Shown one piece after another: positions 2,972 through 63,115 of a DNA stretch of 64,000 nucleotides (positions are counted from its first letter, which is position 1; the number at the start of each line of letters is the position of its first letter). A program made the translations under genes and the position numbers. Source of the stretch: Bartonella taylorii 8TBB (GTDB lineage: Bacteria; Pseudomonadota; Alphaproteobacteria; Rhizobiales; Rhizobiaceae); NCBI RefSeq assembly GCF_902825155.1, contig NZ_CADEAG010000001.1:124001-188000 (forward strand). Reading direction: 5' to 3'. Under the pieces are notes generated by a model. It ran no database searches. It was given only the letters and a program-made list of their open reading frames with translations, and was not told the origin of the DNA.

Positions 2972-3163
2972 ATGAAAAGTGTCCTTTCTCCGTTAGTCTC
3001 AGAGTTTGAAACCATTGAACAGGAAATCAACTATACTGCGTGGCTACGTGACAAAGTAGCAAAGAGCCTTGCAGATCCACATCCTGCGCTTCCGCATGAT
3101 GAAGTTATGGCTGAAATGGAAACTCTAATAGAGCAACTTGAAACCGAACAGAAGAAGTCCTAA
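2972..3163 (+). CDS. PaaA2-like type II antitoxin
   Basis: A 63-residue acidic protein beginning MKSVLSPLVSEFETIEQEI and containing AWLRDKVAKSLADPHPALPHDEV, the signature of the PaaA2/stability-determinant antitoxins that partner ParE2-type toxins. Such antitoxins are largely disordered with two helices and bind the toxin directly. An AAAGGA-type ribosome-binding site lies about 13 nt upstream of the ATG. Its stop overlaps the toxin start by one base (TAATG), the usual translational coupling of such pairs. The E. coli systems add a third gene (PaaR regulator) upstream; no regulator is seen directly upstream here, though XRE genes follow downstream. Confidence 0.8.
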   Translation: MKSVLSPLVSEFETIEQEINYTAWLRDKVAKSLADPHPALPHDEVMAEMETLIEQLETEQKKS

Positions 3164-3450
3164 TGCTACCAGTTGTCTGGTTGCCTTCAGCGCGCAATGA
3201 TTTACGTCAGATTTTAACTTACATTGCCCACAAAAATCCACCCGCTGCACGGCGAATGAAAAGACTTCTGGAAGCTTGTGTACTACCATTATCCGAGCAT
3301 CCGTACCTGTATCGTCAAAGTGAGAGAGTGCTAGGGTTGCGGGAAATCATAGCGCATCCAAATTATCTTATATTGTATCGAGTAGCTACAAAACAAATTG
3401 AGATTGTAACCGTAGTACACGCCCGCCGTGAATTTCCTAACTCCATTTGA
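3163..3450 (+). CDS. parE: RelE/ParE-family toxin (ParE2-like)
   Basis: A 95-residue basic protein starting at the ATG that overlaps the antitoxin stop. It shows the ParE fold signatures: WLPSARNDLRQILTYIAHKNP at the N-terminus, an internal LSEHPYLYRQSERVLGLREI, and the C-terminal strand pair NYLILYRVATKQIEIVTVVHARREFP. ParE toxins poison DNA gyrase; ParE2 homologues bind gyrase but inhibit it differently, so the exact target here is not proven. The length is typical and no frameshift is visible, so the pair is probably functional or recently so. It lies within the accessory island. Confidence 0.85.
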   Translation: MLPVVWLPSARNDLRQILTYIAHKNPPAARRMKRLLEACVLPLSEHPYLYRQSERVLGLREIIAHPNYLILYRVATKQIEIVTVVHARREFPNSI

Positions 3451-3517: not shown

Positions 3518-3546
3518 TTGTAAATCCCTTGAAATTACTTTATAGT
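3518..3546 (+). promoter_or_regulatory. Sigma-70-type promoter of RNA copy 1
   Basis: TTGTAA (3518-3523), a 17-nt spacer, then TATAGT (3541-3546). The same arrangement recurs at the second copy, and the flanks are conserved between units. A transcript would begin near 3553. Confidence 0.6.
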
Positions 3547-3552
3547 TTAAAA

Positions 3553-3762
3553 GGTGATTTTGGTTGTATACGCAACGACCAATAGGGACTTGAAAACCCG
3601 AAACTCAAACATAAAATGAACCCACTCTATGGGTGTCCCGGGATTCCGGGAGATTTTGCTATGTCCAGGTGCTCTCAGCACTAAAAGCAAAATGCTGATT
3701 TGAGTTCAGTGTTTTCAAGCTCCCGGAATACCAATGCGAGGGCGCTCGCAACCGGCGGGGGG
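3553..3762 (+). ncRNA. Brt-like structured RNA, copy 1
   Basis: About 210 nt between a good promoter and the XRE gene. Visible structure: hairpin GGTTGT/ACGACC (3562-3580); ACCCA/TGGGT (3619-3634); GTGCT/AGCAC in the apical region (3670-3682); ATTTTGCT/AGCAAAAT (3653-3660 with 3686-3693); helix B ATTCCGGGAG/CTCCCGGAAT (3643-3652 with 3720-3729); long-range helix A (3589-3597 with 3711-3719 and 3602-3609 with 3699-3706). Helices A and B interlock. I recall genus-specific Brt RNAs of about 200 nt lying directly upstream of XRE (Trp) genes in B. henselae, and this matches in arrangement. Both ends are inferred; no classical U-tract terminator is seen. Confidence 0.7.
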
Positions 3763-4135
3763 CTCTCAAGTGCAAGTAAAAACTCTCAACGACATTTTTG
3801 TAGGCAAGAGAATTCGTTTTAGGCGAAAAATGTTGAAAATGTCTCAAAAACAATTAGCGCATGCTTTAAGCGTAAGCTACCAACAAGTTCAAAAATATGA
3901 AACAGGCTTAAATCGTGTAAGTGCGGGGCGTTTGAAAGATATTGCCGATATCCTGAGCGTTCCACTTACCTTTTTTTACGCTGATGTCTTAACAAAACAA
4001 GAGACCCCATACCAACATGACGAGCTAATATCGAGCAGAGAGGAATATCTGCTTTTAAAAAGATTTAGAATTCTAACCTCTGTAAAACAAAGAGCAATTC
4101 TACAGTTGCTCTCTGACCAGAATGAGAGCTTTTAA
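3734..4135 (+). CDS. XRE-family transcriptional regulator (Trp-like), copy 1
   Basis: Up to 133 residues with an N-terminal helix-turn-helix (about residues 20-75): VGKRIRFRRKMLKMSQKQLA, then the recognition region SVSYQQVQKYETGLNRVSAG and IADILSVPLTFFY. A basic C-terminal region (LLLKRFRILTSVKQRAILQLL) is typical of alphaproteobacterial XRE proteins. The ATG at 3734 falls inside the conserved RNA hairpin GCGAG/CTCGC, and the first 12 codons are nearly invariant between copies at the nucleotide level. The in-frame GTG at 3770, 7 nt after a GGGGGG stretch, may be the real start. Tandem partner at 4406. In B. henselae such proteins are reported to act with Brt RNAs on badA; the target here is unknown. 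Confidence 0.85.
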   Translation: MRGRSQPAGGSQVQVKTLNDIFVGKRIRFRRKMLKMSQKQLAHALSVSYQQVQKYETGLNRVSAGRLKDIADILSVPLTFFYADVLTKQETPYQHDELISSREEYLLLKRFRILTSVKQRAILQLLSDQNESF

Positions 4136-4190
4136 CATCATGGAGAGATCTACACTTTCTGTTCATTAAAAAACACTGTTTTCATTTTTA

Positions 4191-4219
4191 TTGTAAATCC
4201 CCTGAAATTACTTTATGAC
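4191..4219 (+). promoter_or_regulatory. Sigma-70-type promoter of RNA copy 2
   Basis: TTGTAA (4191-4196), a 17-nt spacer, then TATGAC (4214-4219). The -35 box is identical to copy 1 and the -10 is weaker (TATGAC against TATAGT), so the two RNAs may differ in strength. Confidence 0.5.
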
Positions 4220-4225
4220 TTAAAA

Positions 4226-4434
4226 GGTGATTTTGGTCGTATACGCAACGACCAATAGGGAAAACAAGCCCTAAGCTCTAGCGTAAAAATGAACCCACTC
4301 TGTGGGTGTCCCGGGATTCCGGGAGATTTTGCTATGTCCAGGTGCTCTCAGCACTAAAAGCAGAATGCTGACTAGAGCTCAGTACTTGTTACTCCCGGAA
4401 TACCAATGCGAGGGCGCTCGCAACCGGCGGGGGG
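4226..4434 (+). ncRNA. Brt-like structured RNA, copy 2
   Basis: Same architecture as the copy at 3.55 kb: hairpin GGTCGT/ACGACC (4235-4253), ACCCAC/GTGGGT (4293-4307), ATTTTGCT/AGCAGAAT (4326-4333 with 4359-4366, one G-U pair), helix B identical to copy 1 (4316-4325 with 4392-4401). Long-range helix A is AACAAG/CTTGTT (4263-4268 with 4385-4390) plus AGCTCTAG/CTAGAGCT (4274-4281 with 4372-4379). The helix A sequences differ from copy 1 but pairing is kept, which is direct evidence that the RNA structure is under selection. Confidence 0.7.
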
Positions 4435-4807
4435 CTCTAAAGTGCAAACCAAAACTCTCAACGACACTTTTGTAGGCAAGAGAATTCGTTTTAGGCGAAA
4501 AATGCTAAAAATGTCTCAAAAAGAATTAGCGCATGCTTTAAGTGTAAGCTACCAACAAGTTCAAAAATATGAAACAGGCTTAAATCGTGTAAGCGCAGGA
4601 CGCCTGAAAGATATTGCCGATATCCTGAGCGTTCCACTTACCTTTTTTTACACTGATGTCTTAAAAAAACAAGAAGCCCCGTACCAACATGATGAGCTAA
4701 TATCAAGCAAAGAAGAATATCTGCTGTTAAAAAGATTTAGAATTCTAACCTCTGTAAAACAAAGAGCAATTTTACAGTTGCTCTCTGATCAGAATGAAAA
4801 CTTTTAA
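4406..4807 (+). CDS. XRE-family transcriptional regulator (Trp-like), copy 2
   Basis: Same length as its upstream paralogue at 3734 and differing at about ten residues, for example KQLA to KELA, TKQETP to KKQEAP and SREE to SKEE. The helix-turn-helix recognition segment VSYQQVQKYETGLNRVSAG is unchanged, so the two proteins probably bind the same or overlapping operators and may form heterodimers. Start ambiguity is as for copy 1: ATG 4406 inside a hairpin, or the in-frame GTG at 4442 after the G-run. Nothing indicates decay. Confidence 0.85.
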   Translation: MRGRSQPAGGSKVQTKTLNDTFVGKRIRFRRKMLKMSQKELAHALSVSYQQVQKYETGLNRVSAGRLKDIADILSVPLTFFYTDVLKKQEAPYQHDELISSKEEYLLLKRFRILTSVKQRAILQLLSDQNENF

Positions 4808-61100: not shown

Positions 61101-63115
61101 GGAAGATTGTCTACAACAGCCGTAACAGCCTGTAACTCAGTACTCTGCGTGACGCCAATAATCTCAATCTTACTGCTGATATCTTGCCCTAGTGATGCCT
61201 TATTAATTGTAGCATCAAAACGATCATCATGCGCCCGCAAAGCATTTAAAATTTGCCAAACAACCCGATATTTATCATTGTTGTTCAAAGCCTGTTCCAC
61301 TGGAGTCCCAGAGGGAATACCAATCGGCAAAATGACATACCCCATCTTTTTGCCCTCAGAGCGACGCATCACACGTCCAACGGATTGCACAACATCAATC
61401 TGACTCTTGCGTGGATTTAAAAACATGATCGCATCAAGAGCCGGAACATCGACCCCCTCAGACAAACACCGAGCATTGGTCAAAATACGACAAACATCTT
61501 CACCACTATCAGCTTTCAGCCAATCAAGTAATGCACCACGATCCTTCGCATTGAAAGTGCCATCAACATGCTCAATTTCACACTTCAGAAAGTGCTCATT
61601 TTCCGTATTCTCTTTCGTATACTCAAGATATTCTCTAACAACCCCAGAAAATTCATCACGCACCAATTTAGAACTTTGAATAGTTTTACAAAACGCCAAA
61701 GCACGATGCATAGGGTGTGGATCCGCACCAACATCAGCCTTCAGATCTTGTTTTGTCAGCGCCTTATAACAGCCAATAATCTTTGTTGCATCATCAAGAA
61801 CAAGCTCAGACTTGCCATCACTAAGACGCTTCTGAACAGCTGAACTGACCAATTGTTCGTCCACTGCTAAGACAATAACCTTATAATCCGTTAAAAGATC
61901 ATTTTGTACTGCCCATGAAAAACCCCTATAAAAAACTGTTTTACCAAAAAGCTTTTCATCATCCATCGAAGCAAGAACCGCATCAACTTCATGAGCGCGA
62001 CTTTTGACGTTATCACCAAAAATGCGCGGTGTTGCTGTCATATAAAGGCGCTTCTTAGCACGAATAACATCATTGGAATGCACCTTAACAAAATTGGATT
62101 CATCCTCTCCAACCAGCGTTGCCCCTGTTGTACGGTGCGCCTCATCACAAATAATAAGATCAAATGTTGGTAAACCATAATTTTTTTGAGCATCCGCAAC
62201 CACCTGAATCGAGTGATAGGTTGCAAACACAACGGTCATTCTATCTGCAACACTCTTACCCACCTTTTCTGCAAGTTTAGCAGCATCGGTTGTCGCCGGA
62301 AAAGCAAGATCAAACACATCAATTTCAGCAACATCATCACTATTTTTACGACGCTTTCCCACTTGTGTATCTGAACAGACAGCAAAGGAGCGTAATCCGA
62401 TTTCTGCATCCGTTGTCCATTCACGAACCGTCTGTGACATCAGCGCAAGAGAAGGAACAAGAAACAAGACAAACTTGCCTTCACCCACCAAATCCTCAGA
62501 AATTTTAAGACTGGTAAATGTCTTACCGGTACCACAAGCCATAATGAGCTTACCCCGATCTGCTTCCATAAGCCCAGCACGCACATCACGCAATGCCTCC
62601 TGCTGATGTGGACGGATTTTCTTTTTATCCTCCAGCACAATTTTGCCCTGGGCTGCAAAAGTTTCCCAACGGATCGGACTTTGTTGCATATTGGAAAGAC
62701 TAATCCGTATAACAGGAATATCCTGCCCCCGTATCATTGTTTCAGCGTTATCACTCCAAGCACTTTCAGTACTGTCTATAACAACACGCCGCTTGAATGG
62801 AACTTTTCCTGATGCCGAAATAAAACTATCAATATCTGCTTTTTTAATCCGATATGCTGCATCATAAAATTTACATTGGATTGCCGCAAACCCCTCTTCA
62901 TCGCGAAGCTTTGCCACAAGATCGATACCAGTATCACGACCATCCCAATCATTTTCATGCGCCCAATCTTTAAAGGTTTGAACCTTTTCATACTGATCAA
63001 ACTGAAGAGGATCATGCGTCAAATAAGCAAAGGCAAAACGCTCAAAATATGTACCTTTGTCTCGTTCGGTACGCGCTTCATCACGATATGTCTGTAAAAG
63101 CGATTGCAGCGTCAT
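58157..63115 (-). CDS. Single-polypeptide Type ISP restriction-modification enzyme
   Basis: A 1652-residue protein combining restriction, translocation and methylation, like LlaGI and LlaBIII. In order: Mrr-type nuclease with D65 and Q80-x-K82 (GIDLVAKLRDEEGFAAIQCK); superfamily-2 helicase with Walker A GTGKT (195-199), DEAH (324-327), TATPR and the motif VI region QSVGRVMRRSEGKK; a helical coupler; N6-adenine methyltransferase with MDPFTGTGTF (about 909-918) and NPPY (1016-1019); and a C-terminal target-recognition part. All catalytic motifs are intact and there is no frameshift. Such enzymes methylate one strand and cut after convergent translocation. It is a lone gene between AT-rich spacers, probably acquired horizontally. 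Confidence 0.93.
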   Translation of the reverse strand: MTLQSLLQTYRDEARTERDKGTYFERFAFAYLTHDPLQFDQYEKVQTFKDWAHENDWDGRDTGIDLVAKLRDEEGFAAIQCKFYDAAYRIKKADIDSFISASGKVPFKRRVVIDSTESAWSDNAETMIRGQDIPVIRISLSNMQQSPIRWETFAAQGKIVLEDKKKIRPHQQEALRDVRAGLMEADRGKLIMACGTGKTFTSLKISEDLVGEGKFVLFLVPSLALMSQTVREWTTDAEIGLRSFAVCSDTQVGKRRKNSDDVAEIDVFDLAFPATTDAAKLAEKVGKSVADRMTVVFATYHSIQVVADAQKNYGLPTFDLIICDEAHRTTGATLVGEDESNFVKVHSNDVIRAKKRLYMTATPRIFGDNVKSRAHEVDAVLASMDDEKLFGKTVFYRGFSWAVQNDLLTDYKVIVLAVDEQLVSSAVQKRLSDGKSELVLDDATKIIGCYKALTKQDLKADVGADPHPMHRALAFCKTIQSSKLVRDEFSGVVREYLEYTKENTENEHFLKCEIEHVDGTFNAKDRGALLDWLKADSGEDVCRILTNARCLSEGVDVPALDAIMFLNPRKSQIDVVQSVGRVMRRSEGKKMGYVILPIGIPSGTPVEQALNNNDKYRVVWQILNALRAHDDRFDATINKASLGQDISSKIEIIGVTQSTELQAVTAVVDNLPLRAQPARAGIGTPEYDFTLTDEAQGELSFSVDELSRAIMAKIVKKCGTRDYWEDWASNIAEIAKNHITRLTGILAEPDTEARQAFDKFVAELRDDLNDAITEADAIEMLAQHIITRPVFQVLFEGYQFTRENPVSRAMQRMLDVLDEANLDKESKDLEKFYASVKLRASGITDPKAKQRLIIELYDKFFRYAFPRTVEKLGIVYTPIEVVDFILHSVNDVLEQEFGQTLGSSGIHIMDPFTGTGTFITRLLQSGLIKPEEMKHKFCHEIHANEIVLLAYYIAAINIETTYHGLMGGDYVPFEGICLTDTFQLYEQEKDLISDLLVDNSTRRSRQKELDIRVIVGNPPYSVGQKSENDNAKNIGYPKLDCRIRETYAAQSSASNLNKLYDSYIRAIRWASDRIKDCGVIGFVSGSGYVEKLSMDGLRKNLSEEFSSIYVLNLRGDIRKNMLSKGLAQEGQNVFGSGSMTGIAVTLFIKNPNVTEQCEIYYYDIGDNLTTKDKLSKLQRLCSVGGIKREHDWQMITPDEHGDWLDQRNSDFEKFLALGDKKGSDKKLFENFSCGISTSRDAWTYNFSHEYLADNMRNTITFYNNEVEHFNNAYAHSDRKVRANAVNDCVNTDARKISWSSSLKEELIRGNFSEFRSNCLVQSLYRPFTRQWLYYNRIFNERVYQMPRIFPMETAVENRVIQVTGVGARSGFSVLMTKSLPNLDAMEKGQCFPRYIYEDAASLEEQEEDQVHLFANFAEESKKAGLQRRDALTDEGLAYFKAAYPGEMITKDDLFYYVYGILHSEDYRARYAHNLSKELPRIPTVKRVEDFWAFVTAGRKLGDLHMNYEEVEPYPVTYKQGDPRTWMISDEKSFYHVEAMKFAGRRGAIDKSTVVYNAYITMQNIPLEAYEYVVNGRPALEWVMERQIVKTDKASGIVNDANHYAVETVGNPAYPLELFQRVIMVSLETMKIVRSLPKLEVRETENVKLSIGP

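What the first reader, a model, noticed from the sequence alone, without database searches (positions are those of the whole stretch)
3553..4434. Two RNA copies keep a long-range helix by compensatory change, interlocked with a second invariant helix
In copy 1, 3602-3609 AACTCAAA pairs with 3699-3706 TTTGAGTT; in copy 2, 4274-4281 AGCTCTAG pairs with 4372-4379 CTAGAGCT. Three positions changed on both arms so that pairing is kept (A-T to G-C, A-T to T-A, A-T to G-C). The outer part (CTTGAAAAC/GTTTTCAAG against AACAAG/CTTGTT) is wholly different in sequence yet paired in both. Helix B (ATTCCGGGAG/CTCCCGGAAT) is identical in both; its 5' arm lies inside helix A and its 3' arm lies 0-1 nt after it. 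This topology is either a coaxial pseudoknot or two alternative states. Flanking sequence is nearly identical, so divergence is concentrated in helix A, as if helix A must differ between paralogues. Brt RNAs are reported in Bartonella; I do not recall this pseudoknot or covariation being described.
Basis: partly seen in the sequence, partly recalled or inferred. Interest (0 to 1): 0.85.

Follow-up and report, generated by a model that had tools for sequence, protein, structure and literature searches.

The report
Barcode helix in Bartonella Brt RNAs
A known family of Bartonella RNAs that sits in front of a DNA-binding regulator gene is held together by a long-distance helix whose two strands change in step from copy to copy, which gives the family an evolution-tested structure and suggests a folding switch on the regulator's translation start.

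Summary
The two loci are Brt–Trp pairs: a published Bartonella RNA before an XRE-type (HTH_3) regulator. Helix A is real: two short helices, outer and inner, whose strands, about 100 nt apart, change together. Of 203 segmented copies (214 distinct), 163 keep both helices; random re-pairing gives 12%. 74 of 80 independent close-relative pairs prefer their own arms to swapped ones. A helix-level score exceeds all 400 phylogenetic null alignments. Copies with an intact regulator keep helix A more often (114 of 127) than others (40 of 61). Helix B is nearly invariant inside Brt, so covariation there cannot prove it; a diverged homologue in three Bartonella genomes keeps it through three double changes. 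Whether A and B form one pseudoknot or two alternative folds is undecided: helix-B letters also pair locally (P4) and with the regulator's ribosome-binding site (P8), which suggests a switch. That helix A must differ between paralogues is not supported (3 of 244 within-genome pairs share it, 3.1 expected). My searches of the open library showed no report of this covariation or pseudoknot.

The parts
3518..3546 (+). promoter-like TTGTAA-17-TATAGT of copy 1 (expected start of transcription near 3553)
   Evidence: consensus match only, 9 of 12 (5 sites found, 3.0 expected in shuffles; a 10-of-12 match at 3590-3617 lies inside the RNA); start inferred
3560..3582 (+). P1 hairpin, copy 1: TTGGTTGT 3560-3567 / ACGACCAA 3575-3582
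   Evidence: a stem of at least 6 pairs there in 125 of 127 intact-Trp copies and 59 of 68 others
3589..3597 (+). helix A outer, 5' arm (copy 1), pairs with 3711-3719
3602..3609 (+). helix A inner, 5' arm (copy 1), pairs with 3699-3706
3621..3633 (+). P3 hairpin (copy 1)
   Evidence: covaries in the family
3636..3651 (+). P4 local hairpin TCCCGG-GATT-CCGGGA; competes with helix B
   Evidence: pairs kept but little variation
3643..3652 (+). helix B 5' arm (copy 1)
   Evidence: diverged homologue
3653..3693 (+). P5 (3653-3659/3687-3693) and P6 (3669-3673/3677-3681) with the highly conserved internal loop TATGTCCAR ... CTAAAA
   Evidence: first P5 pair covaries A-U/U-A/C-G
3699..3706 (+). helix A inner, 3' arm (copy 1)
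3711..3719 (+). helix A outer, 3' arm (copy 1)
3720..3729 (+). helix B 3' arm (copy 1); can also pair with 3752-3759 (P8) or with the GGG before helix A (A0)
3736..3749 (+). P7 hairpin GCGAG-GGCG-CTCGC
   Evidence: highly conserved in the list
3752..3762 (+). CCGGCGGGGGG: P8 partner of the helix B 3' arm and Shine-Dalgarno-like tract of trp
   Evidence: ribosome-binding role inferred
3770..4135 (+). trp regulator of copy 1 (GTG start), HTH_3 / XRE type
   Evidence: start inferred from frame phases in the family
4233..4255 (+). P1 hairpin, copy 2
4263..4268 (+). helix A outer, 5' arm (copy 2), pairs with 4385-4390
4274..4281 (+). helix A inner, 5' arm (copy 2), pairs with 4372-4379
4309..4324 (+). 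P4 local hairpin (copy 2)
4316..4325 (+). helix B 5' arm (copy 2)
4372..4379 (+). helix A inner, 3' arm (copy 2)
4385..4390 (+). helix A outer, 3' arm (copy 2)
4392..4401 (+). helix B 3' arm (copy 2)
4424..4434 (+). CCGGCGGGGGG of copy 2 (P8 partner, SD-like)
4442..4807 (+). trp regulator of copy 2 (GTG start), HTH_3 / XRE type

Best explanation
The two loci are members of the published Brt RNA family, cis-acting leaders of the Trp regulator genes. Helix A (outer + inner) is a long-range closing helix, like the P1 stem of a riboswitch: only its pairing is selected, so its sequence drifts by paired change and by recombination. It closes a junction that holds P3, the helix-B 5' strand and the P5/P6 arm with a highly conserved internal loop, the likely place where a ligand or protein binds. 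Right behind helix A comes CTCCCGG, the switch strand. It either pairs back into the junction (helix B, a pseudoknot if helix A stays formed), which leaves the G-rich ribosome-binding site of trp free, or it is left over while CCGGGA folds locally (P4), and then it can mask that site (P8). Masked, untranslated trp mRNA would be lost by Rho-type termination or decay, leaving the abundant ~200-nt Brt RNA. Shown here: helix A, P3 and P5 by covariation; conservation of the three competing pairings; association of matched helix A with an intact trp. Inferred: pseudoknot or exclusive states, on/off assignment, Rho, ligand.
For: Helix A: cognate vs non-cognate arms; both helices kept in 163 of 203 copies against 12% under random re-pairing; 74 of 80 independent nearest-relative pairs (52 of 55 with intact Trp, 14 of 18 without); in a global alignment of 186 distinct copies, matched or not, 10 of the 11 best covariation scores are pairs of helix A (8), P3 (1) or P5 (1); best 6-pair stretch 559 against a maximum of 264 in 400 tree-simulated alignments. 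Cis link: helix A matched in 114 of 127 copies with intact Trp and in 40 of 61 without, odds ratio 4.6, p = 1.7e-4. Switch elements in intact copies: helix B 10/10 pairs in 121 of 127, P4 6/6 in 119, P8 7/7 in 113. Diverged homologue before an HTH_3 gene: helix B GGGACCGGGGG/CCCCCGGTCTC, 11 pairs, -23.0 kcal/mol, three double changes relative to Brt, and a helix A of different sequence. Literature: deleting the Brt1 3' region raises trp1 transcription (review PMC8070961, passages seen).
Against: Thirteen of 127 copies with intact Trp lack a matched helix A, so it is not strictly required; in the genome I take for B. henselae (G023) 3 of 6 segmented copies are unmatched, two of them with an intact Trp. 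Nested folding of 114 copies gives P4 above 0.5 in 91, helix B in only 21, P8 in only 20; for copy 1 helix A + helix B is estimated at -79.3 kcal/mol before any pseudoknot penalty against -82.5 for the nested fold. Inside Brt, helix B has one double change in 61 sequences; the homologue's three double changes are one lineage. Per-pair E-values against the tree null are weak (best 0.075), and a first alignment showed no helix-A pair. The published knock-down argues for an additional trans role (PMC5387305).
Confidence: 0.55

Rival explanations
1. Static scaffold: Brt is mainly a trans-acting sRNA; helix A just closes a stable structure, helix B complementarity is a by-product of a near-palindromic P4 hairpin (TCCCGGAATTCCGGGA) and a conserved 3' sequence, and there is no switch on trp.
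For: Nested folds favour P4 and helix A. An antisense Brt1 strain raised badA, and no longer transcript reading into trp1 was seen (PMC5387305, passages).
Against: The diverged homologue keeps an 11-pair helix B through three double changes; the association of matched helix A with an intact downstream Trp; conservation of the B3'-SD complementarity.
Confidence: 0.25
2. Helix A is an identity tag under diversifying selection: co-expressed sibling Brt RNAs must not pair with each other, so each copy needs its own arm pair.
For: Of 13 within-genome pairs with at most 5% 4-fold divergence in Trp, 11 differ in both inner and outer arms, for example two G066 copies with identical Trp sequence and 31% different arms. 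Same outer type is slightly rare within genomes (6 against 11.0 expected, P = 0.065).
Against: Whole-barcode sharing within genomes is at chance (3 against 3.1) and inner-type sharing too (16 against 18.9); three own-genome copies share one inner helix. Between genomes close pairs differ as well: of 5 pairs at most 5% apart, 2 share the inner and 1 the outer arm.
Confidence: 0.12
3. The arms act in trans: 5' or 3' arms pair with other transcripts or with sibling Brt RNAs, and the cis match is a storage form.
For: The family is published as partly trans-acting (PMC5387305, passages).
Against: Orphan inner 5' arms of mismatched copies find a partner among same-genome copies in 9 of 24 cases against 10 of 24 for equal numbers of foreign copies; outer 6 of 21 against 4 of 21. 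The sequence is free to vary, unlike a seed held by a target.
Confidence: 0.05

Closest known systems
Brt RNA / Trp family of Bartonella henselae (Tu et al. 2016, PMC5387305)
   Same: Multicopy ~200-nt RNA, genus-restricted, directly upstream of an HTH (XRE) regulator, most conserved at the 3' end.
   Different: The paper folded single sequences with RNAfold; its main text holds no 'pseudoknot' and no word beginning 'covari'. Added here: a covariation-tested architecture and a diverged homologue in three Bartonella genomes that plain DNA search with the window copy had missed.
Riboswitch / leader-type attenuators with a P1 closing stem and a switching strand (general knowledge)
   Same: Long-range closing helix with free sequence, conserved internal loop, switch strand just 3' of the closing helix that overlaps expression signals of the downstream gene.
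   Different: No ligand known, no Rfam family reaches its gathering score, no U-tract terminator at the 3' end.
H-type pseudoknot regulatory elements (general knowledge)
   Same: Interleaved order A5'-B5'-A3'-B3' with 0-1 nt between A3' and B3'.
   Different: Both loops are long and carry hairpins; simultaneous formation of A and B not shown.

Membership tests
Brt RNA family | Located directly upstream of an HTH DNA-binding (Trp) gene | tested here: met
   Both trp genes match HTH_3 (E 9.1e-13 and 1.1e-12) and start at 3770 and 4442 behind the RNA
Brt RNA family | Length 194-203 nt | tested here: inconclusive
   Inferred start near 3553 to the G-rich tract near 3757 gives about 200 nt; ends not measured
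Brt RNA family | Multicopy and confined to Bartonella | tested here: met
   Model R1: 49 of 71 genus genomes, 613 matches added up by hand from the table, at most 42 candidates scored per genome; 0 of the 296 other genomes drawn from the order, 10 candidates scored in each listed genome, strict filters. A sample, not a proof of absence
Brt RNA family | High transcription with little trp mRNA | not testable with these tools
   No expression data for this genome
Riboswitch | Covarying structured leader upstream of a gene | tested here: met
Riboswitch | Ligand binding changes the fold | not testable with these tools
   No ligand data; falling heme is reported to raise a brt1-gfp reporter (PMC8070961 passages)
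Intrinsic-terminator attenuator | GC hairpin followed by a U-tract before the gene | tested here: not met
   (simple consensus scan): the only + strand terminator-like sites are the two P4 hairpins (followed by GATTTTGCTA), in mid-RNA; none between 3700 and the trp start
H-type pseudoknot | Two interleaved helices, both supported by covariation | tested here: inconclusive
   Helix A supported; helix B nearly invariant in Brt, supported by one diverged lineage; simultaneous formation untested

The most novel reading that the evidence does not exclude
Brt is a combinatorially barcoded self-recognition RNA: two short helices, each existing in about 30 sequence versions, are reassorted among hundreds of paralogous copies by recombination events that must replace both far-apart strands together, so that every copy folds on itself and not on its abundant siblings, and each closed domain works as a private switch for its own regulator.
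Probability: 0.13. Interest if true: 0.85.

Novelty: new variant of a known kind. Interest (0 to 1): 0.6.

Why it matters
The Brt/Trp pairs are reported to control the main adhesin and biofilm growth of B. henselae (PMC5387305, abstract and passages), and how the RNA acts on the regulator has rested on single-sequence folding. A covariation-tested architecture names the helices, the conserved core and the strand that could switch, and offers hundreds of natural variants, some with broken helix A, as ready-made tests. The family is also an unusually clear natural record of long-range compensatory change inside a recombining multigene family.

Tried and rejected
Covariation by column pairs. A first alignment (252 columns, with promoter) against a tree-based null gave no helix-A pair, only one non-pairing column pair at E 0.13. 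I then trimmed to the RNA core and used a global alignment, where helix A dominates; the per-pair E-values stay weak, so I rely on the helix-level statistic and on the alignment-free tests. The second alignment was made after seeing the first fail.

Wrong genome positions. Searches used a wrong orientation for minus-strand loci and counted some copies twice; their numbers are discarded for those. Searches worked on de-duplicated sequences; thereby inflates arm divergence between near-identical copies, and one search replaces both (one search had given 121 matched and 9 unmatched with intact Trp, 43 and 23 without). A first count of P1 stems allowed too short loops and is replaced.

Orthogonality between paralogues: no depletion of shared barcodes. 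Trans pairing of orphan arms: same-genome and foreign copies alike. Rfam: nothing at gathering score (three weak unrelated hits at E 2.3 to 4.7). Phages: no match. Other genomes of the order: none in 296, with strict filters. Relatives of the diverged homologue's gene in other Bartonella: I looked at the leaders of ten of them and could not recognise the Brt core.

Selections to bear in mind. The 205 genomic copies come mostly from the matches most similar to window copy 1, out of at least 613 matches. 42 of 338 nhmmer hits were partial and left out; 11 of 214 and 10 of 205 copies could not be segmented, 7 more had too little downstream sequence. Alignment A2 holds only copies with intact Trp and matched arms, one per barcode, so its 94.6% pairing is partly by selection, and so is model R1.

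Full report
WHAT IS THERE. The window (a Bartonella genome, G000:C1:124001-188000; the genus follows from the named relatives) carries two Brt-Trp pairs. Both downstream genes are HTH_3 proteins. The family is published: Tu et al. 2016 (PMC5387305; I saw the outline with abstract, passages, and the first of three parts of the Results) describe Brt1-9 of B. [quoted passage not shown] The words pseudoknot and covari* do not occur in its main text, nor pseudoknot in the 2021 review PMC8070961 (passages). Searches for Brt, for Bartonella with pseudoknot and for XRE with structured RNA listed no other paper that by its title or abstract deals with this structure (listings only); subscription papers are not held. 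No Rfam family reaches its gathering score.

HELIX A IN THE FAMILY. From 80 fetched stretches and the loci of three searches I extracted 296 full-length hits, 214 distinct. In 203 that could be segmented by anchors that do not use the pairing, 163 form both an outer and an inner ungapped helix of at least 6 pairs; inner 86%, outer 87%; random re-pairing of arms between copies gives 21%, 55% and 12% for both. Among matched copies there are 30 inner and 32 outer 3' arm versions in 82 combinations: for instance three copies of the window's genome share the inner helix AGCTCTAG/CTAGAGCT with three different outer helices. Cognate duplexes of the 167 distinct arm pairs average -15.45 kcal/mol, non-cognate -8.53, and the lowest mean of 10,000 permutations was -9.30.

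RELATEDNESS. Shared ancestry does not explain it. Against the arms of the five closest relatives (judged on sequence outside helix A) the cognate arm is better in 175 of 195 copies; in independent nearest-relative pairs it is better in 74 of 80, in 52 of 55 among copies with intact Trp and 14 of 18 among the others. In a global alignment of 186 distinct trimmed copies, matched or not, 10 of the 11 top APC-corrected G scores are base pairs of helix A (8), P3 (1) and P5 (1). On a tree-simulated null single pairs are only borderline (best E 0.075), but the best 6-pair stretch (inner helix A, 559) exceeds all 400 simulations (maximum 264), and 8 of the top 11 scores lie on one antidiagonal against at most 3 in the null; the P3 and P5 stretches alone do not pass that test (213 and 253 of 400 simulations reach them). 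An earlier, longer alignment missed helix A.

LINK TO THE GENE. Of 205 distinct genomic copies in 36 genomes, 195 were segmented and 188 had enough downstream sequence. Helix A is matched in 114 of 127 copies with an intact Trp frame and in 40 of 61 without (odds ratio 4.6, p = 1.7e-4; copies are related, so p is optimistic). All 7 segmented copies of the window's genome are matched, two of them without an intact Trp (8 matches). In G023, which I take for B. henselae, only 3 of 6 segmented copies are matched, and two of the three unmatched have an intact Trp. Five Bartonella plasmids, found afterwards, carry a copy before an annotated HTH gene. Reading their sequences, all five have matched outer and inner helices; the inner arms CTCGAACT, CTATAATT and CTAGAATT are not among the 30 versions, and L279 and L282 share the same arms. 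The script segmented only L279 correctly; the other four I read by eye.

HELIX B AND ITS COMPETITORS. In 61 selected copies 7 of 10 helix-B pairs never vary and one double change occurs. In 127 intact copies helix B is 10/10 pairable in 121, P4 (TCCCGG/CCGGGA) 6/6 in 119, P8 (CTCCCGG with CCGGnGGG at the ribosome-binding site) 7/7 in 113, and GGG before helix A, which can also pair with the B strand, is present in 119. These compete for the same letters, which would explain why they are frozen while helix A roams; covariation inside Brt cannot rank them. Energies do not decide: for copy 1 the nested fold is -82.5, helix A with both B strands kept free -62.7 plus helix B -16.6. Over 114 copies, nested partition functions put P4 above 0.5 in 91, helix B in 21, P8 in 20 and GGG:B3' in 63 (the last labels of that printout are shifted by one: its 'side)' row is GGG:B3', its 'A0' row is the unpaired SD region).

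A DIVERGED HOMOLOGUE. A covariance model (R1, nested helices only) finds 49 of 71 genus genomes, 613 matches by my addition, and no hit in the 296 other genomes drawn from the order. New against the DNA search are single hits in G059, G060 and G061 (E 3.4e-8 to 6.0e-8), 96-100% identical to each other over 541 bases. All three lie before a related HTH protein; that of L241 (G059) matches HTH_3. In L241 the arms TTGCAAC/GTTGCAA (outer) and GATCTATGGA/TTCATAGATT (inner, 10 ungapped pairs with two G-U) form helix A (-18.4), and GGGACCGGGGG pairs with CCCCCGGTCTC (-23.0) exactly where helix B is expected, directly behind helix A. Relative to Brt that is three double changes (T-A to G-C, T-A to A-T, A-T to G-C) and one A-T to G-T (aligned by hand; one lineage, so one case). 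The core TATGTCCAAG ... CCAAAAGC is kept, and the B strand can again pair with the SD tract (CCCCCG:CGGGGG, read by eye). The lowest-energy nested fold of this RNA contains helix B and not helix A, opposite to copy 1: the two helices are close competitors or partners.

TRANSLATION START. In 127 intact copies the conserved upstream ATG position could be placed in 126; it is ATG in 102 and ACG in 18, and its distance to the trp start is a multiple of three in only 54 of 126, so the start behind the G-rich tract is the likely one. No U-tract terminator was found at the 3' end; P4 is terminator-like but in mid-RNA.

MUST PARALOGUES DIFFER? Near-identical paralogues differ mainly in helix A: of 13 within-genome pairs with at most 5% 4-fold divergence in Trp, 11 differ in both helices, for example G066 C2 2340300 and 2341799 with identical Trp and arms 31% apart; of 5 equally close between-genome pairs 2 share the inner and 1 the outer arm. 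Yet barcodes are not avoided within genomes (3 of 244 pairs share one, 3.1 expected; inner 16 against 18.9; outer 6 against 11.0, P 0.065). Gene conversion whose tracts may not cut between the arms is enough to explain the pattern. Orphan arms of mismatched copies show no clear preference for partners in their own genome.

VERDICT. Helix A is established (about 0.97 by my judgement). A cis role for trp is likely. Helix B is probably real. The switch on the ribosome-binding site is the best mechanism I can offer but is inference.

Noticed in passing
window 2972-3450: A ParE toxin / PaaA2 stability-determinant pair (PF05016, PF21217) lies directly upstream of Brt copy 1.
   Followed up: no
L278-L282: Brt-Trp pairs occur on five Bartonella plasmid records, two typed conjugative and two mobilizable, so the pair may travel. 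The L282 copy appears to lack the P3 hairpin (by eye).
   Followed up: partly
L269-L277, L261 upstream of the HTH gene: Ten other Bartonella loci have a related HTH gene whose leader, often with a G-rich stretch of its own, I could not align to Brt; it may be a further diverged relative.
   Followed up: partly
window 3636-3651 and 4309-4324: P4 plus the following GATTTTG looks like an intrinsic terminator in mid-RNA, and the family consensus TCCCGGAATTCCGGGA is a 16-nt palindrome that could also drive RNA dimers.
   Followed up: no
window 62028-62073: Weak partial match to model R1 (14.2 bits, E 0.2), probably chance.
   Followed up: no
alignment of 186 copies, columns 39 and 43, between helix A inner 5' arm and P3: A strong non-pairing column correlation in the tail behind the inner arm; may be an indel or haplotype effect.
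   Followed up: no
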